Positions 51,689 to 64,000 of a DNA stretch of 64,000 nucleotides are shown piece by piece (the first letter of the stretch is position 1; the number at the start of each line of letters is the position of its first letter). Location of the stretch: NCBI GenBank assembly GCA_017387565.1, contig JAFOEY010000046.1:1-64000 (forward strand), read 5' to 3'. The position numbers and the translations under genes were made by a program. The notes beneath the pieces are model-generated. The model was not told the DNA's origin, did not search any database, and worked only from the letters and a program-made list of their open reading frames with translations. The DNA is from Lachnospiraceae bacterium. Lineage in GTDB: Bacteria > Bacillota > Clostridia > Lachnospirales > Lachnospiraceae.

Positions 51689-53308
51689 ATGGCAGAACAG
51701 AACAATCAGAAGGGCGGACAGGCTAAGGAGCAGGATCTGAATCAGCTTTTAAAAGTACGTCGAGAAAAATTAGCAAATCTGCAGGAAGCAGGTAATGACC
51801 CCTTTGTCATTACAAAATATGACCAGACACATCATACGGAAGAAGCAAAGGCTCTCTATGAAGCGCATGAAAAAGAGATTCTTGGTGACCGCAAAGTGCC
51901 CGATACAACCGGATTATCCGAAGAAGAGGCAAGAAGTGTACTCAAAGAGGACTACAATGAGCGAAGAGCCATCATGGATGCTTCTCCGATTCATGTTTCA
52001 CTTGCCGGACGTATGCTTTTCAAACGTGTTATGGGTAAAGCGTCTTTCTGTAATATTCAGGACAGAGACGGACGAATTCAGGTATATGTAGCCCGTGATG
52101 CGATTGGTGAAGAAGATTACGCAGACTTCAAAAAATCGGATATCGGCGATATTTATGGTGTTAAGGGATTTTTATTCCGTACTATGACTGGTGAGATTTC
52201 TCTTCATGCAGAAGAAATTGTACTGCTTTCCAAGAGCTTGCAGATTCTTCCTGAAAAATTCCATGGTCTGACCGATACCGATATGCGTTATCGCCAGAGA
52301 TATGTGGATTTGATTATGAATCAGGAAAGCAAAGAAGTATTTATCAAGCGTTCCAAGATTTTAAAAGAAATCCGTAATTTCCTTGCTGACAGAGACTTTA
52401 TGGAAGTGGAAACACCGATGCTCGTTTCCAATGCGGGCGGTGCTGCAGCAAGACCGTTTGAAACACATTACAATGCGCTTGACGAAGATGTAAAATTGCG
52501 TATATCTTTAGAGCTTTATTTAAAGAGACTGATTGTCGGCGGCTTGGAAAGAGTGTATGAAATCGGTCGTGTATTCCGTAACGAAGGCGTGGATACCAGA
52601 CATAATCCCGAGTTTACTCTAATGGAATTGTATCAGGCATACACAGACTATGAAGGCATGATGGAACTGACCGAAAGCATGTTCCGTTATCTTGCAGAAA
52701 AGGTTTGCGGTACAACTAAGATTACTTACAATGGAATCGAAATTGACCTTGGAAAACCGTTTGAGCGTCTGACCATGAATGATGCCATTAAAAAATATAC
52801 CGGTATTGATTTTGATACCGTTTCTTCCGATGAAGAAGCAAAAGCACTTGCAAAAGAAAAAGGAATTGAGTATGAAGAACGTCATACAAAAGGTGATATC
52901 ATCAACTTATTCTTTGAAGAGTTCTGCGAGGAGAATTTAATCCAGCCGACCTTTATTATGGATCATCCGCTTGCAATTTCTCCTCTTACCAAGAAGAAAC
53001 CTTCCGATCCCGAAAAGGTAGAGCGTTTCGAGTTATTTATCAATACTTGGGAAATGTGCAATGCATATTCCGAGTTAAACGATCCCATCGATCAGAGAGA
53101 ACGTTTTGCACAGCAGGATGCCAATGCGGCAGCAGGTGACGATGAAGCAGAACATACTGATGAAGATTTCTTGAATGCGCTGGAAATCGGTATGCCTCCG
53201 ACAGGCGGTATCGGATACGGTATTGACAGACTCGTGATGTTGTTGACGGATAGTCAGGCGATTAGGGATGTGTTGTTGTTCCCAACGATGAAGTCATTAG
53301 ACAAGTAA
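51689..53308 (+). CDS. lysS: Lysyl-tRNA synthetase, class II
   Basis: LysS charges tRNA-Lys. The 539-residue enzyme has an N-terminal OB fold anticodon domain (about residues 65-180) and the class II core with motif 2 ([14 protein letters not shown]) and motif 3 ([12 protein letters not shown]). It is about 40 residues longer than many LysRS, due to an N-terminal extension. The end is intact ([11 protein letters not shown]), although a mobile element begins immediately after it. No normal terminator is seen in the 140 bases after the stop. Confidence 0.96.
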
Positions 53309-53456
53309 AAACCACATAAAATCAAGGGTTTCAGGGTGTTCGGTAGGTGCTTACTACAACGCTTACTACAACAAATTCGTAAGTTGATATGAAGAATTAT
53401 AAGCTCAACTGACGGATTGCTTTGAACAACTACAGATAGAAAAACATGTAAAATGA
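53309..53456. mobile_element. Presumed left end of an integrated mobile element
   Basis: The lysS stop is followed by DNA of different character. A perfect 12-base tandem repeat (GCTTACTACAAC, twice, at 53349-53372) resembles arm-type or inverted integrase-binding sites of tyrosine-recombinase elements. The genes after it are replication and partition genes. The exact attachment core cannot be set without the other end. Confidence 0.55.
53349..53372. repeat. 12-base tandem direct repeat at the element end
   Basis: Two perfect adjacent copies of GCTTACTACAAC. Repeats of this kind near phage or ICE ends are often recombinase arm-binding sites; here this is inferred. Confidence 0.7.
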
Positions 53457-57000: not shown

Positions 57001-57417
57001 ATGGCAAAGTATCAAGTCATGATTGATGACAAACCTAAATACGAGAAGAATTACAAATTACCATTAATCAATATTGTGCCTGCAGTTATTTGGAGTATTC
57101 CGTTTCATCAGAAGTTATTTCCGGATGCGGAATGGTGGATGACATTTGGTTTGTGCGCAGCATTTGTTGTTGTGTATGTGGTACTTAGTTATCTTCCTAT
57201 TATAGTTGCAGTACCCTCTATTGCAGGAGTTATTATTTTGACAGCGTTGTTTTGGGTACCGGCAGATTACATAGGGAATAATGTTGCAAGGATAATTGTT
57301 AAAGTGCTAATCGCAATTGTTTGTGGATTTATTGAGCTGGGGATATTCGCAAATGCAACGGTTCCTTGGTTGGAAGGAAAAGAGGCAAATAAGCCAAGGA
57401 TTAGAGTGGAAAGATAA
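57001..57417 (+). CDS. Small membrane protein
   Basis: This 138-residue protein has four membrane segments (about 22-40, 50-70, 76-92, 100-122) and a short basic tail. No family recognised. It lies 34 bases after the nucleotidyltransferase gene and ends in a terminator, so it closes this element transcript. Confidence 0.65.
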   Translation: MAKYQVMIDDKPKYEKNYKLPLINIVPAVIWSIPFHQKLFPDAEWWMTFGLCAAFVVVYVVLSYLPIIVAVPSIAGVIILTALFWVPADYIGNNVARIIVKVLIAIVCGFIELGIFANATVPWLEGKEANKPRIRVER

Positions 57418-57432
57418 TATAGGTAAATGTGA

Positions 57433-57464
57433 GGCAATCATCAGTTTTGGTGGTTGCCTTTTTT
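57433..57464 (+). terminator. Rho-independent terminator
   Basis: GGCAATCATCA pairs with GGTGGTTGCC (with G-U pairs), followed by TTTTTT; 15 bases after the membrane protein stop. Confidence 0.9.
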
Positions 57465-57675
57465 ATGTGTCCGTTTTTATGGACACATAGTCTGATAAGA
57501 TGGTCATAGAATATAGAGAATAGGATAGGAAAAGGATGTTTATTAGCTGGTAAAATGTCTTCTGGAGGACTGCAAGGACAGCTAATATTTTATATGTATA
57601 TTCTAACCAGTTGGAGCATAATCGCAAGAACTTGCAGATTATTTTCGCATTTATGATGAAAAAACTAGAGATTTG

Positions 57676-57684
57676 TGGTAGAAT
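57676..57684 (+). promoter_or_regulatory. Extended -10 promoter of the cargo operon
   Basis: TG-G-TAGAAT, 51 bases before the XRE gene. No strong -35 box. Confidence 0.4.
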
Positions 57685-57735
57685 GTCTAATGAGTTATTG
57701 TATCATTTTAGTTTTATGTTTTATGAGGATTAAAA

Positions 57736-57942
57736 ATGAAGATAAGCTATAAAAAATTATGGATTATGCTAGCAGAACAAGAAATGACAAAGCAGGAGTT
57801 TAGAGAAAAACTGCAAATAGCATCGGGTACGATGACGAAATTGAATAAAGGACAGGAAGTATCTATGTCTGTAATTCTGCGAATCTGTGAATATTTCAAA
57901 TGCAATATAGGGGATATTTGTGACGCAGTTAAAATGGACTAG
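57736..57942 (+). CDS. XRE-family transcription regulator
   Basis: This 68-residue Cro/C1-type helix-turn-helix protein is one DNA-binding domain only (MTKQEFREKLQIASGTMTKL then VSMSVILRICEYFKCNIGDI). It is 15 bases upstream of the PAPS-reductase-like gene and probably regulates that operon. It is similar to small YozG/Xre regulators common in defence islands and mobile elements. Confidence 0.85.
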   Translation: MKISYKKLWIMLAEQEMTKQEFREKLQIASGTMTKLNKGQEVSMSVILRICEYFKCNIGDICDAVKMD

Positions 57943-57957
57943 TACGTTGGAGAATAT

Positions 57958-59688
57958 ATGATAGAAAAAGTATGCCCTAAATGCAGGGTGCCTATGAATG
58001 GAGAAAAGTGTATAAAACCTGAATGTGGCCATTCGACAGTTATGTCATCAACCATATATTGGTGTGATGATTGTAATATTCCTATTTTTGATAATGTGTG
58101 CCCTATTTGTGGAAAAGAGGGAAGATACATTGCAACAGATATGAGACCGGTGTTTCCGGAAGAGAATGTTTTGATTTCGATTCTGTTGGAGAATGATCCT
58201 AAGAGTTATCAAGAGGATTCAGTTTGGTTTGGAAGTGGTGTGTACATAATTAATGGCAAGAAGGTGCGTTTGCCTATTTCAAAGATAAACAAGCTGCCGA
58301 TTGAAGATATTAAGGAATTAAAGGAAAAGTATGAAGCTTTTTCAGATAGTATCACCTATGAATTTTTTAATGAGCATGTAAAGAGATTTATTACAGCAAA
58401 TACTGATAGATATAACTATATAACTGAAGAAGCAGTACATTTTGTTCAACAATATCGAGACAAATATGAGATTGAAGATATGATGGTGTCTTTTAGTGGC
58501 GGTAAGGATTCTACAGTCACTTCTCATATTGTAAATCGTGCGTTGGGAACTAATAAGGTTCTTCATGTGTTTGGAGATACAACGCTTGAATTTCCTTATA
58601 CATTGGAATATAAGAAAAGATTCAATAAGAATGAGGAATCGCAGGGTGTTAGAATTCTAACGGCAAAGAACCGAGAGAAAAATTTTGAAGAACTATGTGA
58701 AGTAGTAGGACCTCCGAGTAGAGTAATGAGATGGTGTTGCACCGTTTTCAAGACAGGTGCTATTCAGAAGACTATTGCAACTGCGTTTAAAGACAAGAAG
58801 AACATATTAAGCTTTCAAGGGATTCGTCATAATGAATCTGCTAGTAGAAGCAAATATGAAAGAGAAAGCGAGAGTCCAAAGATTTCAAAACAGACTGTAG
58901 CATCACCTATCATTGATTGGATTGATTATGATGTATGGTTATATATCTTAACGACAGAAATTGACTTCAATGAAGCTTATAGACTTGGATGGACACGAGT
59001 TGGATGCTGGTGTTGTCCTAATAATGGTGGTTGGTCAGAATTCTTAGCAAAGGTTCATATGTATGACCAGTATTTGCATTGGCATGAATTATTAGTGGAT
59101 TTCGCTAAAAAGATAGGCAAGCCGGATCCAGAAGATTATGTAGATGATGGTGGTTGGAAAGCAAGACAGGGTGGTAATGGGCTAGCAGCTGCACAAACGT
59201 CGGTTGTATCGTTTGAACCTTGTGCTACAGATGAGAATGCTTTCAATTATGACTTGCAGAGGCCGATAACAGAAGAATTATATGAACTCTTTAAGCCGTT
59301 TGGATATATCAACAAGGAACTTGGTAACAAACGTCTGGGTGAAGTTTATGTAATGAATAAGGCTGGAAAGGTTGTTCTTGTTTTACAAGGACGTTTAGGT
59401 AGCACGAAACTTAAAGTAGTTATTAAGGATATTCATATAGCAAAAGCGAAAACACTTTCTGTGGCTGAAGGAAAAATACAGTGTCAGTTAACAAAGTATC
59501 AGATGTGTCTAGGATGTAAAGCCTGCGAAAGTGTATGTAAATTTGATGCTATAAGTGTTAAAGATGACGGAACAGGAAAAATAACTTATACAATCAATGA
59601 TGAAAAGTGTAGACGTTGTACAGAGTGCGTGGGTCATTTTAATGCTGGATGTTATATGAGAAAAGTTCTAGGAATAAAGAGGACATAA
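57958..59688 (+). CDS. DndC/BrxP-like PAPS reductase domain protein with zinc ribbons and ferredoxin
   Basis: This 576-residue protein has, in order: two zinc-ribbon-like cysteine sets (Cys6/9/18/23 and Cys36/39/48/51), a central PAPS reductase (ATP pyrophosphatase) domain with the PP-loop SGGKDS at 180-185 and RWCCTVFK (Cys260-261), a GCWCCPN cluster (Cys350, 352, 353), and a C-terminal 2x[4Fe-4S] ferredoxin (CxxCxxCxxxC at 517-527 and CxxCxxC at 551-557 with Cys565). The PP-loop and cysteines resemble DndC, the ATP-using Fe-S protein of DNA phosphorothioation, and BrxP of BREX type 4. Direct fusion with ferredoxin gives a built-in electron supply. Which sulfur reaction it performs is unknown. 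Confidence 0.85.
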   Translation: MIEKVCPKCRVPMNGEKCIKPECGHSTVMSSTIYWCDDCNIPIFDNVCPICGKEGRYIATDMRPVFPEENVLISILLENDPKSYQEDSVWFGSGVYIINGKKVRLPISKINKLPIEDIKELKEKYEAFSDSITYEFFNEHVKRFITANTDRYNYITEEAVHFVQQYRDKYEIEDMMVSFSGGKDSTVTSHIVNRALGTNKVLHVFGDTTLEFPYTLEYKKRFNKNEESQGVRILTAKNREKNFEELCEVVGPPSRVMRWCCTVFKTGAIQKTIATAFKDKKNILSFQGIRHNESASRSKYERESESPKISKQTVASPIIDWIDYDVWLYILTTEIDFNEAYRLGWTRVGCWCCPNNGGWSEFLAKVHMYDQYLHWHELLVDFAKKIGKPDPEDYVDDGGWKARQGGNGLAAAQTSVVSFEPCATDENAFNYDLQRPITEELYELFKPFGYINKELGNKRLGEVYVMNKAGKVVLVLQGRLGSTKLKVVIKDIHIAKAKTLSVAEGKIQCQLTKYQMCLGCKACESVCKFDAISVKDDGTGKITYTINDEKCRRCTECVGHFNAGCYMRKVLGIKRT

Positions 59689-59689
59689 T

Positions 59690-60547
59690 ATGGCAACTGA
59701 GAAAGTAAAAATAAAATTACAGGGACATGAGAAGTTTGCATTACGCGAGGGATGGGTCAATAAAGCATTGATGCTTCTACCAGATAATTCAGATGCATTT
59801 ACCAGAAAAGATGCGACAGACTTATTTGGAATTGGTAGTAATATGGTTAAGTCGCTTAGATATTGGATGCGAGCTTTTGGACTGACAAATACTCAGGGGA
59901 CTGAGTTGTCGGAAGTAGGCAAGCTGATAGCTGAATATGATCCGTATTTAGAAAATATGTTTAGTCTATGGATTATGCATTCCTATATTGCAAAGAATAA
60001 AGAAGATGCTACTACTTGGTTTATGTTTTTCAATAGATGTGATGCAAATGACATGGATAAGAATGAGATAGAAAGCATTTTACTAAGAGAAGTTCGAAAG
60101 TATGCTGCAGGCACATCTTTCTCTGAGAAATCCTTGAGTAATGATGTTGATGTCTTATTGAATATGTATAGTAAGAGCAAGGATAAGGTTGATCCAGAAG
60201 ATAAAAGTGTATCACCTTTTGCCCAATTAGCCATGATTAAAAAGATGGACGGAAGATATATGAAGAATCATCCGAGCAAAGCACTTTTCCCTGAAGAGGT
60301 GGTTCTCTATGAATTAGCGACAAGAAAGCTTGGAAGTGAAGGCGTTTCTATTGAGGAAGTAGTGTTTGGCGAAGGTGGATTAAATAAAATATTTAATATG
60401 ACAGCAGTAATGGCAAATGACTATTTTGATAGATTGGATGCGGCGGGGTATATTCGAGTGGATAGAACTGCTGGTTTGGACATGATTTATCCAGTAAAAG
60501 TTTTTGATGAACTAATGGTTATCGAAAATTACTATAAGAAAAATTAG
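59690..60547 (+). CDS. DUF4007 family protein
   Basis: This 285-residue protein matches the DUF4007 pattern, a winged-helix-like family (KFALREGWVNKALMLLPD, FTRKDATDLFGIGSNMVKSL, LRYWMRAFGL; later YELATRKLGSEGVSIEEV). DUF4007 genes occur next to DndC-like PAPS reductase genes in anti-phage loci, and here it starts two bases after the previous stop with AGAGGA upstream. It may be the DNA-binding specificity or a regulator; this is inferred. Confidence 0.8.
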   Translation: MATEKVKIKLQGHEKFALREGWVNKALMLLPDNSDAFTRKDATDLFGIGSNMVKSLRYWMRAFGLTNTQGTELSEVGKLIAEYDPYLENMFSLWIMHSYIAKNKEDATTWFMFFNRCDANDMDKNEIESILLREVRKYAAGTSFSEKSLSNDVDVLLNMYSKSKDKVDPEDKSVSPFAQLAMIKKMDGRYMKNHPSKALFPEEVVLYELATRKLGSEGVSIEEVVFGEGGLNKIFNMTAVMANDYFDRLDAAGYIRVDRTAGLDMIYPVKVFDELMVIENYYKKN

Positions 60548-60558
60548 TAGGTGAGAAA

Positions 60559-63500
60559 ATGGCAAAACTTGATTCGTTGAAAGATATTATTAAGTTTAAT
60601 AGTAGTTTTAAGACAGCCGTTAATTTGTATTTGAGTCTTAATAAGCCTGAAAAGGTTTTGGGATATATACCAACAAAGTCTTCTGTTAATTTCATGGGAG
60701 ATTACTTAAAGGCAGTATTGGAAAACAAAGAACAGGCAACTTTATTAGTTGGTCCTTATGGTAAGGGTAAATCACATTTATTATTAGTTCTTTTAGCAGC
60801 ATTATCAATGGAGCGAAATGTTGCAAATGAAGAAGTGATTTCTAAGCTTATCAAAAATGTGAATGACGTAGATGAGGTCGGACCAACTGTAGCTAATAAA
60901 CTTGAAAATGTATGGAAGAACAAAAGATTTTTACCTGTTTTAATTACTGATACTACAGGTGACTTAAACCAGGCCTTTCTTTATGGCTTGAATGATGCAC
61001 TTAAACGTGAAAAATTGAATGAACTCGTGCCAGAAACATTTTATTCTGTCGCCTTAAATAGAATAAATGATTGGGAAGAAAATTATAGAAGTACCTATGA
61101 TGCTTTTGAAGCGGAACTGGCAACGAAGGAAATGACTATTTCAAAGTTAAAGACCGATATAGGTCAGTTTTCTAAGGAAGCACTAGATATTTTTAAGGAA
61201 ATATATCCTCGTGTAACTGCGGGAAGTGAATTTAATCCTATGGCAGTTTCTGATGTAGTTCCTTTGTATAAGAGTACAAGTGAGAAACTTGTAGAAGAAT
61301 ATGGATATAGTGGTATCTACATTGTCTTTGATGAGTTCAGTAAGTTTATTGAGAGTCAAGATGGTGTTGCAGCTGGAGAGAAAATGAAGTTACTCCAGGG
61401 AATGTGTGAATTAGCCACAGATTCAAAGAATGCACAAGTGTTTATTACATTGGTTACTCATAAGAGTATCAAAGAATATGGTAAATATCTTTCGCAAGAT
61501 ACAATAAATATGTTTACGGGTATCGATGGAAGATTGATTGAAAAATATTTTGTGACTTCTTCAAAGAACAATTATGAATTAATCAAAAATGCGATTGTAA
61601 AGGATGAGAACAGATTATCTGATATTCCTCATGTTGAGAAGTATTTGGGAGAGGAAAAGTTTAGAGAATTTTTCTCGTTGCCAGCTTTTAAGAGTCACTT
61701 CTTGGAGAATGAATTCAGAAATATAATATTCAGAGGCTGTTTCCCATTAAATCCAGTATCTGCTTATTTATTATTGAATGTAAGTGAGAAGGTTGCGCAG
61801 AATGAACGAACACTATTCACATTTATATCAAACGATGAACCACACAGTATGGCAAGATTTATTTCGGAACATACTGCGGATATGGAGTGGAGTATAGGTG
61901 CAGATTTAATTTACGACTATTTCAGTTCATTATTTAAGAAAGAAGTTGTTAATGAATATGTTCATAATATTTGGTTGAGTGCAGAATATGCGCTTGATAA
62001 ATGTGAAACATTAGACCAGAGAAAAATTGTTAAAGCATTAGCAATCGTATTAATTGTTAATAAAGAGGAAGAAATTCCAGCTACAAGAAGTTATCTCAAG
62101 CTATGTGTAAATGCTGATGATGCAGACCAAGCAATCACAGAACTTTTTGAAAAGGAATATATATATAGAAAGGGTTCAACTGATTCGTATATTTTCAAGA
62201 CAAGAGCTGGATCAGAATTAAGAGCTGAGATGCGCAGACGTAGTGAGTTAAGAGGTGATAATGCAAACTATGCGAATGCGCTTTTGGATGTTACAGGAAA
62301 GTATTATGTTGTTCCTAGAAAATATAATACTGAGAAATCAATGACTCGATATTTTACAAATGAGTATATGAGTGTGGATGATTTCTTGGGTATCGATTCT
62401 GCTCAGGCATTAATAGGTGATGATGTTTTAGATGGTAAAGTTATCACTTTATTTAGTTTTACAGGAATTAAGCAGGAATTAGTTAATAAGCACTTACTTA
62501 AGTTTGCTGATAAGAGATTAATTGTTGTTTGTCCTAAAAAGGCAATAAAGGCAAAAAAGCAATTAAAAGAGTATGAAATCATTCGAGAAATTCAAGATGA
62601 TACTGCTTTTATTAATAATAACGAAATTCTTAAAAAGGAATTACCAGTATTATTAGATGATTTGTCTCTAGAATTAGAAGCAATGATAAGCTCTGTTTAT
62701 GAAGACGATTCAGAAACAAGAGTACTCTATTTCGATGGAACAAAGATTAAGAATGCGAAATCGGGAAATGAGGAGAACGCAGTAAATGAGTGTTGTTATG
62801 CGTTGTATCCACTGTCACCAGAAGTAAACAACGAGATGGTAAATAGAGCTGTAATTGGTACGGCTCAGACAAAAAAAGCAAGATTAAATATTATTCAGGC
62901 ATTACTTTCTCATGCTGATACTCCTGATTTTTATGCAGGATCTAATCAAGAAGCAACAATATATAGATCGTTATTTACTGTTACGAATGTCATTAATGGC
63001 GAGACAAAAGAAAACACAAGAAAGATTATTGAGACTATAAATGAGTTCGTAGATTCTTGTTGTGATCAGAAAGTGTCAGTTTCTGCTTTAGTAAGCAAAT
63101 TGGTCAAAGAACCATATGGTATGCGCGCTGGATTAATTCCTTTTTATGTAGCTTATGTTTTATCAAATAGGCGAGAAGACATAATCGTTTATTTTGCAGA
63201 CAAAGAGCTTCAAATAACTCCAGATATTGTTGTTAATATGTGTGAACAATCGGAAGATTATTCAATGTATGTTTCAAAAGAAGATCTTCAGAAAGAGAAA
63301 TACATAGCAGAGTTAAATAGATTATTTCAGGTGGATGATAATAGAAACCTATCGTCTAACAGAATAAAGGACATTATTATTTGTATGCAACGCTGGTTTA
63401 GAGCATTACCTCAGGCGACAAGAAATACAATTAATCTTGATAAATATGTCTCGGATGAGGCAAGTATTAGAGCAATCAAAGCCGTTAAGAAGGCAATGCA

Positions 63501-64000
63501 GAAAGTGGAATATAATCCATTTGAAATTCTTTTTGTAGATTTTCCTAATGCCTTTGAAACAGATTCGTTAGAAAGTACATTCATGGTGCTAGATGAATGT
63601 AAAACATATTTTGATGATTATTTTTCTTGGATTGAACAGCAGGCGATATCTGTGATTTACAGTATTTGGGATTCAAAGAGAAAGCAAGAGCTATATCATA
63701 CCTTAAAAGAGTGGTATGAAAATCAAAGTAAAAGCTCTAAACAAGGGCTTTATGATGGCAGAATGACCAGCTTTATGTCATGTATAGAGATGCTTGATGT
63801 TTATAGCAATGAAGATGTAGCTAGTAAGATTGTAAAAGCTGTAACGGATGTTTACCTTGAAAATTGGAATGTTGATTCGCTTGAAGAATTCGAAAATGCA
63901 TTACAGAAGGTGAAGAATGACGTGGAATCAGTTCGCGATAATTCTTCTGTGGGAGACTTTGAACTTACATTTATGGGAAAAAATGGTAAGGAAATTAAGA
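60559..64000 (+). CDS. BrxC-like P-loop ATPase (partial, runs off window)
   Basis: This open frame starts at 60559 with AGGTGAG before the ATG and has no stop up to 64000, so at least 1147 residues are encoded. Walker A is GPYGKGKS (residues 65-72) and Walker B is IYIVFDEF (Asp258-Glu259). The start, with a GYIPTKSSVNFMGDYLKAVL region and the KGKSHLL P-loop, looks like the large BREX ATPase (BrxC/PglY) group, which are about 1200 residues. It lies 11 bases after the DUF4007 gene. The assignment as BrxC rather than a related STAND-like ATPase is moderate. Confidence 0.75.
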   Translation, partial: MAKLDSLKDIIKFNSSFKTAVNLYLSLNKPEKVLGYIPTKSSVNFMGDYLKAVLENKEQATLLVGPYGKGKSHLLLVLLAALSMERNVANEEVISKLIKNVNDVDEVGPTVANKLENVWKNKRFLPVLITDTTGDLNQAFLYGLNDALKREKLNELVPETFYSVALNRINDWEENYRSTYDAFEAELATKEMTISKLKTDIGQFSKEALDIFKEIYPRVTAGSEFNPMAVSDVVPLYKSTSEKLVEEYGYSGIYIVFDEFSKFIESQDGVAAGEKMKLLQGMCELATDSKNAQVFITLVTHKSIKEYGKYLSQDTINMFTGIDGRLIEKYFVTSSKNNYELIKNAIVKDENRLSDIPHVEKYLGEEKFREFFSLPAFKSHFLENEFRNIIFRGCFPLNPVSAYLLLNVSEKVAQNERTLFTFISNDEPHSMARFISEHTADMEWSIGADLIYDYFSSLFKKEVVNEYVHNIWLSAEYALDKCETLDQRKIVKALAIVLIVNKEEEIPATRSYLKLCVNADDADQAITELFEKEYIYRKGSTDSYIFKTRAGSELRAEMRRRSELRGDNANYANALLDVTGKYYVVPRKYNTEKSMTRYFTNEYMSVDDFLGIDSAQALIGDDVLDGKVITLFSFTGIKQELVNKHLLKFADKRLIVVCPKKAIKAKKQLKEYEIIREIQDDTAFINNNEILKKELPVLLDDLSLELEAMISSVYEDDSETRVLYFDGTKIKNAKSGNEENAVNECCYALYPLSPEVNNEMVNRAVIGTAQTKKARLNIIQALLSHADTPDFYAGSNQEATIYRSLFTVTNVINGETKENTRKIIETINEFVDSCCDQKVSVSALVSKLVKEPYGMRAGLIPFYVAYVLSNRREDIIVYFADKELQITPDIVVNMCEQSEDYSMYVSKEDLQKEKYIAELNRLFQVDDNRNLSSNRIKDIIICMQRWFRALPQATRNTINLDKYVSDEASIRAIKAVKKAMQKVEYNPFEILFVDFPNAFETDSLESTFMVLDECKTYFDDYFSWIEQQAISVIYSIWDSKRKQELYHTLKEWYENQSKSSKQGLYDGRMTSFMSCIEMLDVYSNEDVASKIVKAVTDVYLENWNVDSLEEFENALQKVKNDVESVRDNSSVGDFELTFMGKNGKEIK

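What the first reader, a model, noticed from the sequence alone, without database searches (positions are those of the whole stretch)
57736..64000. Candidate anti-phage sulfur-based defence operon (XRE, ferredoxin-fused PAPS reductase, DUF4007, BrxC-like ATPase)
Four consecutive, tightly spaced genes on an integrated element match the beginning of a BREX type 4-like or phosphorothioation-related locus. The PAPS-reductase protein carries its own zinc ribbons and a 2x[4Fe-4S] ferredoxin, so it could move electrons and sulfur without separate partners. No PglX methylase or DndB/D/E gene precedes it. Type 4 BREX, as classified by Goldfarb and co-workers, is expected to have brxP, brxC, pglZ and brxL; the last two would lie beyond position 64000.
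Basis: partly seen in the sequence, partly recalled or inferred. Interest (0 to 1): 0.88.

Follow-up and report, generated by a model that had tools for sequence, protein, structure and literature searches.

The report
Sulfur-marking defence with unnamed cutter
A gut-type bacterium carries, on an inserted element, genes that probably mark its own DNA with sulfur and, next to them, a three-gene set that probably destroys foreign DNA; the marking genes are of a known kind, but I found no description of this attack set.

Summary
The four genes are real, but the locus is not type 4 BREX. Beyond 64000 the contig continues with a cysteine desulfurase, an SF2 helicase (HEL), a MORC-like GHKL ATPase and a PLD nuclease; PglZ and BrxL were not found in the genome. 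By profile the core is an Ssp phosphorothioation (PT) module (SspD-B-C-A) whose SspD is the ferredoxin-bearing BrxP type, an arrangement already in print. The new part is HEL-GHKL-PLD. In Clostridia it sits in a slot after SspA where relatives carry known PT effectors instead (PbeA/PbeC, SspFG, GmrSD); trees need at least 10-11 changes of effector. The GHKL forms a clade of 27 sequences: 26 lie near Ssp genes, one is on a contig edge. The clade spans five phyla and either kind of SspD. Two Lachnospiraceae operons differ by a clean swap of HEL-GHKL. I read the triple as a further PT restriction module besides DndFGH/SspFGH, SspE and PbeABCD. Whether it attacks unmarked DNA or senses the mark is not shown. 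It is rare in the sampled family (2 of 299 genomes). I found no description of it in my searches. All evidence is comparative.

The parts
57736..57942 (+). XRE/Cro-type HTH gene (68 aa), probable regulator, first gene of the operon
   Evidence: HTH_26 3.9e-17; an XRE match precedes SspD in 13 of the 28 relatives
57958..59688 (+). sspD, BrxP type: zinc-ribbon-like N terminus, PP-loop PAPS-reductase domain, 2x[4Fe-4S] ferredoxin motifs (576 aa)
   Evidence: PADLOC BrxP 1.2e-79, SspD 4.8e-13; SGGKDS loop, C260-C261, C350/C353 and the ferredoxin cysteines invariant in the 15 sequences aligned
59690..60547 (+). sspB (DUF4007), predicted DNA recognition/nicking subunit (285 aa)
   Evidence: PF13182 1.2e-75; PADLOC SspB 4.8e-52; solved SspB 6juf/6lb9 3.6e-18
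60559..64000 (+). sspC ATPase (1193 aa), the part inside the window; ends at contig position 64140
   Evidence: PADLOC SspC 8.1e-104 against BrxC 6.5e-27; Walker A residues (G68, G70, K71, S72) and D258-E259 invariant in the 8 sequences aligned
64000..64000 (+). Operon continues beyond the window on the same contig (contig = window coordinates; L002 starts at 60000): sspA cysteine desulfurase 64152-65297 (381 aa); HEL, SF2 helicase 65297-66994 (565 aa); GHKL/MORC-like ATPase 67007-68821 (604 aa); PLD nuclease 68818-69732 (304 aa from a TTG that overlaps the GHKL stop; an ATG follows 12 bases later)
   Evidence: SspA: Aminotran_5 3.5e-68, PADLOC SspA 3.4e-36, C337 and K202 invariant in the 8 aligned. 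HEL: ResIII 1.6e-23, motifs TGxGKT, DEAH, ATPGR, TTGFD, QMxGR invariant in the 18 aligned, PDB RadD 6jde 2.1e-16 and 7clg 4.5e-15. GHKL: HATPase_c_3 1.7e-19, PDB MORC4/2/3 best 1.9e-7, E39, D42, N43, D76, G80, G107, G109 invariant in the 16 aligned. PLD: PLDc_2 1.7e-11, H92, K94, G106, S107, N109, E124 invariant in the 19 aligned, D99 in at least 90%
57431..57460 (+). terminator-like hairpin that parts the Ssp operon from the element's replication genes
   Evidence: a consensus match only (2 terminator-like sites found in 57400-58100, mean in shuffles 0.2)

Best explanation
An Ssp-type DNA phosphorothioation restriction-modification locus with an effector module that I did not find described. 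Modification (inferred by homology): SspA takes sulfur from cysteine; SspD, with its own ferredoxin as electron path, activates and passes it on; SspB recognises and nicks the target and SspC drives the complex on DNA, leaving a backbone sulfur mark on self DNA. Restriction (inferred): the MORC-like GHKL protein closes on DNA in an ATP-dependent way and works as a unit with the SF2 helicase, which moves or opens the DNA, while the PLD nuclease cuts it. Most likely it attacks DNA that lacks the mark (as SspFGH does); a module switched on by the mark (as SspE is) is the second choice and is also listed as a rival. Shown: gene content, order, conserved catalytic residues, linkage, exchange of effectors. 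Inferred: all activities and the direction of discrimination.
For: Profiles name the four core genes SspD/B/C/A. D-B-C-A is complete in 20 of the 28 relatives; of the 19 with a readable slot, 8 carry HEL-GHKL-PLD, 8 PbeA+PbeC, 2 GmrSD+PbeA, 1 SspFG. At least 11 changes of effector on the SspD tree and 10 on the SspC tree of 33 loci. A GHKL clade of 27, of which 26 are Ssp-linked. Plasmids: 14 of the 14 best GHKL records hold SspC within 13 kb; none of the other 31 is among the SspC records listed. HEL-GHKL swapped as a block in one pair of operons. Catalytic motifs conserved.
Against: No activity is shown. L125 has the GHKL without Ssp genes in the 11 kb held, though its upstream side is cut off. 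In L034 and L036 the PLD is replaced by a 359-aa protein without Pfam match; the one compared, L036's, does not match the PLD profile. The PLD does not match the N-terminal part of a PbeA at sequence level. The module is rare: 2 of 299 family genomes, and in the class sample of 341 only the window's own. Linkage alone cannot tell attack on unmarked DNA from sensing of the mark. No structure could be predicted. The 8 relatives in the clade were found through SspD, not independently of it.
Confidence: 0.74

Rival explanations
1. Type 4 BREX (brxP-brxC-pglZ-brxL).
For: SspD is closest to BrxP in PADLOC (266 bits); PMC12839542 section 34 describes the same SspD/BrxP, DUF4007 and cysteine desulfurase set in type 4 BREX.
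Against: No PglZ or BrxL match in the genome or in the 8.2 kb downstream; SspC scores 346 bits against BrxC 92.
Confidence: 0.02
2. HEL-GHKL-PLD is a self-standing defence system that merely shares a defence island with Ssp.
For: Known defence proteins contain similar domains (MzaB, DrmC); Alphaproteobacteria and IMG/VR contigs often carry the module divergently from SspBCD (L032, L036, L076, L127-L129), or up to 13 kb from SspC; L125 shows no Ssp genes.
Against: 26 of 27 clade members are Ssp-linked, across five phyla and in different gene orders; in Clostridia it takes the slot used by known PT effectors; none of 31 more distant GHKL plasmid records is among the SspC records listed.
Confidence: 0.1
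3. A version of the best explanation with the other sign: a PT-sensing effector like SspE. The mark switches the module on and it damages invading DNA, with no harm to cells that lack the mark.
For: Strict linkage to modification genes fits this as well; GmrSD/SspE-like proteins occupy the same slot in relatives.
Against: A multi-gene module with an ATP-driven translocase is closer in plan to SspFGH, which damages unmarked DNA (PMC8092258, passages). Weak evidence.
Confidence: 0.28
4. The locus marks DNA for gene regulation or redox protection and does not restrict.
For: PT roles outside defence are reported for a Salmonella PT system (start of the abstract of PMC9239176, seen in the listing).
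Against: A nuclease with conserved HKD residues and a helicase lie beside the marking genes and are exchanged with known effectors.
Confidence: 0.05

Closest known systems
SspABCD-SspFGH (Vibrio anguillarum FF-93; PMC8092258, passages read)
   Same: SspB, SspC, SspD, cysteine desulfurase core; three-gene effector; SspFG occupies the same slot in L008 (PADLOC) and L107 (my profiles)
   Different: Effector genes unrelated (helicase, GHKL, PLD instead of SspF, SspG and FtsK-like SspH); SspD here carries a ferredoxin
SspABCD-SspE
   Same: Same marking core
   Different: SspE is a DUF262-DUF1524 protein (PMC12707154, passages); here three genes with other domains
Dnd + PbeABCD (PMC10853773, passages read)
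   Same: PbeA is an SF2 helicase fused to an HKD nuclease; HEL matches its helicase part (hhalign probability 97.5)
   Different: Here helicase and nuclease are separate genes, the nuclease does not match PbeA's N terminus, and a MORC-like ATPase stands in place of the CxC ABC ATPase
Type 4 BREX (brxP, DUF4007, brxC, pglZ, brxL)
   Same: BrxP-type PAPS reductase with ferredoxin, DUF4007, ATPase and often a cysteine desulfurase (PMC12839542 section 34)
   Different: No PglZ, no BrxL; the ATPase is SspC-like
MORC/paraMORC restriction systems (PMC2292703, parts 1-2 of 4 plus passages)
   Same: GHKL ATPase with SF2 helicase and nuclease, in a few cases an HKD domain
   Different: Those neighbourhoods often carry DNA methylases; the words phosphoadenosine and PAPS do not occur in that paper
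PLD-helicase enzyme in PDB 7clg (SauUSI, name recalled)
   Same: Both HEL (4.5e-15) and the PLD profile (4.2e-6) match this chain
   Different: One chain there, two genes plus a GHKL ATPase here

Membership tests
Ssp phosphorothioation system | SspB, SspC and SspD together | tested here: met
   PADLOC SspB 4.8e-52, SspC 8.1e-104, SspD 4.8e-13 (BrxP 1.2e-79 is the better profile); adjacent genes
Ssp phosphorothioation system | Cysteine desulfurase (SspA or IscS) | tested here: met
   SspA 3.4e-36; C337 and K202 invariant in the 8 aligned
Ssp phosphorothioation system | A known effector, SspE or SspFGH | tested here: not met
   None among the genes scanned after SspA; HEL-GHKL-PLD instead. Not searched elsewhere in the genome
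Ssp phosphorothioation system | Phosphorothioate in the host DNA | not testable with these tools
   Needs mass spectrometry or PT-seq
Type 4 BREX | PglZ (kept in all 457 taxa of PMC12839542) | tested here: not met
   No PF08665 match in G000
Type 4 BREX | BrxL (436 of 457 taxa there) | tested here: not met
   No PF13337 match in G000
Type 4 BREX | BrxP-type PAPS reductase with ferredoxin | tested here: met
   BrxP 266 bits; ferredoxin cysteines invariant
Dnd | DndC, DndD, DndE | tested here: not met
   P0002 DndC only 37 bits; no DndD or DndE match among the 10 proteins scanned; the rest of the genome was not searched for them
PbeABCD | PLD-helicase fusion plus CxC ABC ATPase | tested here: not met
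   Separate genes; no ABC ATPase among the proteins scanned
MORC/paraMORC GHKL ATPases | GHKL ATP-binding motifs plus S5 domain | tested here: inconclusive
   GHKL motifs invariant in the 16 aligned and PDB MORC matches; the S5 domain was not tested, as no structure could be predicted

The most novel reading that the evidence does not exclude
HEL-GHKL-PLD is a fourth restriction branch of DNA phosphorothioation systems in which a MORC-like ATPase clamp, working as an exchangeable unit with an SF2 helicase, reads the sulfur state of the DNA backbone and licenses a PLD nuclease. It may be the effector of a sizeable share of Ssp loci that have had no known effector.
Probability: 0.4. Interest if true: 0.82.

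Novelty: new variant of a known kind. Interest (0 to 1): 0.64.

Why it matters
One survey (PMC8092258, passages) found 2,678 sspBCD loci, of which 196 had sspFGH, 199 sspE and 36 more both, so most had neither. A 2025 review (PMC12707154, passages) lists three PT restriction branches: DndFGH/SspFGH, SspE and PbeABCD. A linked helicase/MORC-like/PLD module in at least five phyla gives a direct candidate for part of that gap (14 plasmid records, against 66 with SspC; 12 of the 14 are among the 60 listed there, the other two). The common slot in which unrelated effectors follow one marking core allows a clean test: does one backbone mark serve several different cutters? The HEL-GHKL block swap names the partners to co-purify.

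Tried and rejected
Type 4 BREX: rejected after reading the contig to its end and searching PglZ and BrxL in the genome. A split PbeA: the helicase part fits but the nuclease does not match PbeA's N terminus, so I claim likeness in plan only. DISARM (DrmC, 31 bits) and MZA (MzaB, 44 bits, GHKL domain only) were seen and dropped: single weak domain matches. HEL also matches NCBIfam's Dnd restriction enzyme model TIGR04095 far below its cut-off (39.7 bits against 600).

G444 has a GHKL (183 bits) without DUF4007; its neighbours are sugar-metabolism genes and it falls outside the clade. L081 and L130 lie near Ssp genes but their GHKL falls outside the clade; they are not counted in the 26. The weaker GHKL matches (63-88 bits) of the class and family searches fall outside the clade too. 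No Rfam match in L002. The phage collection gave 2 weak partial GHKL matches. Genome sampling in other phyla was not possible, so the phylum spread rests on plasmid records; IMG/VR contigs bear no host name. Plasmid hit H12, a near copy of H13 by its identity figures, was not opened. Of 24 genomes with DUF4007 in the class and family searches I searched 23 for PglZ and BrxL; G081, below the family cut-off, was left out. In G341 a PglZ lies near the end of another contig while the DUF4007 contig is only 4.9 kb, so a BREX locus in that genome is not excluded.

A co-decay test (broken SspC with intact effector) was not concluded: the split SspC of Geminocystis is matched by a two-piece SspC in Cyanobacterium sp. 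HL-69, so it may be natural.
Full report
WHAT IS THERE. The window lies on contig C54 of a genome of 2.9 Mb in 69 contigs, and the contig runs 8.2 kb further (L002). There the ATPase ends at 64140 and is followed by a cysteine desulfurase, an SF2 helicase (HEL), a GHKL ATPase and a PLD nuclease, again nearly touching, and then by three small genes without a confident family.

WHAT THE CORE IS. PADLOC profiles give SspB (4.8e-52), SspC (8.1e-104 against BrxC 6.5e-27) and SspA (3.4e-36). For the PAPS reductase BrxP is best (1.2e-79), ahead of SspD (4.8e-13) and DndC (5.3e-10). SspB also matches the solved SspB structures 6juf/6lb9 (3.6e-18). In 15 aligned SspD sequences the PP-loop SGGKDS, C260-C261 with C350/C353, and both ferredoxin cysteine sets are invariant. 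The CC...CxxC spacing resembles the iron-sulfur site of APS reductases (recalled, from no call). The genome has no PglZ and no BrxL match, so this is an Ssp core with a BrxP-type SspD and not type 4 BREX. That some SspD proteins share the BrxP arrangement is in print (PMC12839542, section 34). In type 4 BREX the PAPS reductase is often fused to DUF4007 (same section); here the two are neighbouring genes.

THE SLOT AFTER SspA. A genome scan with SspD returned 28 loci, mostly Lachnospiraceae and other Clostridia by their titles. Twenty of 28 hold D, B, C and A (in L018 SspC is in two frames); of the others L006, L015, L020 and L028 are cut by contig ends, L010, L025 and L030 are broken, and L027 shows no recognised partner. 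Of the 20, one (L004) ends just after SspA. The remaining 19 carry HEL-GHKL-PLD (8), PbeA+PbeC (8), GmrSD/DUF262 with PbeA (2; in L019 the DUF262 gene stands between C and A), or SspFG (1). PADLOC named proteins from four of these loci (L007, L008, L016, L019); the rest are by profiles that I built from such members. A survey that did not start from SspD found DUF4007 in 18 of 299 family genomes. In the 17 besides the window's own the slot holds PbeA+PbeC in 6, GmrSD in 3, GmrSD+PbeC in 1, HEL-GHKL-PLD in 1, nothing that I recognised in 1, and is cut off in 5. In the class sample of 341 genomes DUF4007 was found in 7 and a full-length GHKL only in the window's own; of the six others five were read: PbeA+PbeC in two (L106, L109), SspFG in one (L107), one cut off (L108), one with only a DUF4007 fragment (L110). 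So the module is rare in this sample: 2 of the 13 family loci with a readable slot, the window's included. In 23 DUF4007 genomes PglZ was over its cut-off in 4 and BrxL in 1, never on the contig with DUF4007, though these are drafts. On trees of 33 loci the five effector labels need at least 11 changes (SspD) and 10 (SspC); shuffled means are 16.1 and 16.2, with 0 of 200 shuffles as low. So effector type is inherited for a while and then exchanged. L007 (PbeA+PbeC) and L008 (SspFG) are sisters with SH-aLRT 100 in both trees.

THE MODULE BEYOND CLOSTRIDIA. tblastn of the GHKL of L032 against 72,556 plasmid records gave 45 records. The 14 best by bit score (149 bits and more) all hold an SspC match in the same record, 1.8 to 13 kb away. 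None of the other 31 appears among the SspC records listed (60 of 66, 41 of 41). I opened 13 of these 14 and six weaker ones; five of the six show no Ssp gene in their annotation, and the sixth is unannotated and showed none with my profiles. For the Agrobacterium record (L034) SspC lies outside the stretch that I opened and is known alone. A scan of IMG/VR contigs with the GHKL profile gave 6 loci: four with the triple plus SspB, SspC and SspD, one (L130) with SspBCD but only a divergent GHKL, and one (L125) with the GHKL at a contig edge and no Ssp gene in the 11 kb held. The GHKL tree of 48 sequences has one clade (SH-aLRT 99) of 27: 26 Ssp-linked and L125. Of the 26, 17 were found through the GHKL itself (12 plasmid, 4 IMG/VR, 1 genome), 8 through SspD, and one is the window's own. 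HEL precedes GHKL in 26 of 26 (a fragment in L018); a PLD match is present nearby in 24 of 26 (on the other strand in L127, after intervening genes in a few), and in L034 and L036 a 359-aa protein without Pfam match stands there. The clade covers Bacillota, Spirochaetota, Cyanobacteriota, Bacteroidota and Alphaproteobacteria, with long and short SspD. Two Ssp-linked GHKL (L081, L130) fall outside it. These counts are not independent events.

A BLOCK SWAP. Lachnospira multipara (L003) and Butyrivibrio fibrisolvens 16/4 (L018) are 94, 92, 91 and 80% identical in SspD, B, C and A and 92% in PLD, but 57% in HEL and 41% in GHKL (HEL of L018 is a 296-aa fragment). DNA identity is about 80-91% until late in sspA, 50-72% over HEL and GHKL, and 82-87% again within PLD. 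The window's HEL and GHKL are 80 and 83% identical to those of L003, although SspC is only 59%. In this pair HEL and GHKL have been exchanged as a unit, separately from the nuclease and from SspB-SspC, which suggests that they form a complex (inference).

HOW IT MAY WORK. The HEL motifs (18 sequences aligned), the PLD HKD histidine and lysine (19) and the GHKL motifs (16) are kept in every sequence aligned, which is part of the clade in each case, so all three are probably active enzymes. GHKL is nearest by profile to MORC ATPases among solved structures; HEL and PLD both match one solved PLD-helicase chain, 7clg. The simplest reading is an ATP-driven clamp and translocase that bring a PLD nuclease to DNA of the wrong sulfur state. 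Attack on unmarked DNA is my first choice by analogy with SspFGH, PT sensing as in SspE my second; the sequence does not decide.

WHAT IS KNOWN. Papers seen: PMC12839542 (passages and section 34), PMC8092258, PMC10853773, PMC11931770, PMC12707154, PMC12421847 and PMC8011034 (passages), PMC2292703 (parts 1-2 of 4 plus passages). PMC12707154 names three PT restriction branches. MORC-like ATPases with SF2 helicases and nucleases were described in restriction-modification neighbourhoods in 2008 (PMC2292703). I saw no paper that joins this triple to phosphorothioation, in the searches, of which I read listings and the passages named; one search listed 30 of 60 papers and 20 of 31. Only open-licence PMC papers are held and no preprints, so a description elsewhere is possible. 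PADLOC-DB 2.0.0 (2023) has no model that fits the three proteins well: best are PbeA 68 bits, MzaB 44 bits and DrmC 31 bits, and MzaB is the only model matched by all 16 GHKL members scanned.

LIMITS. No structure was predicted. No activity is shown. The element's far end was not identified on the contig.

Noticed in passing
window 53293-53334: The end of lysS is an insertion site: close homology with three genus relatives stops there, and two of them (G631, G635) carry diverged DNA similar to the ParA/ParB region at that place (in G631 also to the RepA_N gene).
   Followed up: partly
L002 10799-10829, 11386-11416, 11925-11958: Three similar palindromes (arms of the ACTTTTGG...CCAAAAGT type) after the small genes downstream of PLD; terminators or operator sites.
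   Followed up: no
L007, L011, L012, L017, L023, L024, L026, L029 (slot after SspA): Ssp core followed by PbeA and PbeC; in the passages I read Pbe is described with Dnd or methylase systems, so Ssp-Pbe hybrids may be undescribed.
   Followed up: partly
L016 17549-19705, L019 16231-18411, L088-L090, L092: GmrSD/DUF262 (SspE-like) proteins next to the same core; in L019 the gene lies between SspC and SspA.
   Followed up: partly
L034 9028-10107, L036 11759-12838: A 359-aa protein without Pfam match stands where the PLD nuclease is expected, a possible replacement nuclease.
   Followed up: partly
L078 3-2541 and CP024914.1 27706-30385: SspC is in two pieces in two related cyanobacteria, perhaps a natural split.
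   Followed up: no
SspB and SspC across the window and L003-L022: SspB and SspC diverge in step (for example 59/59, 70/67, 92/91% identity) while SspD stays much more alike, as expected if B and C set sequence specificity.
   Followed up: partly
L081 13683-14315: A PC4-like gene (single-strand DNA-binding fold, recalled) lies between a divergent GHKL and the helicase in a Rhodobacteraceae plasmid.
   Followed up: no
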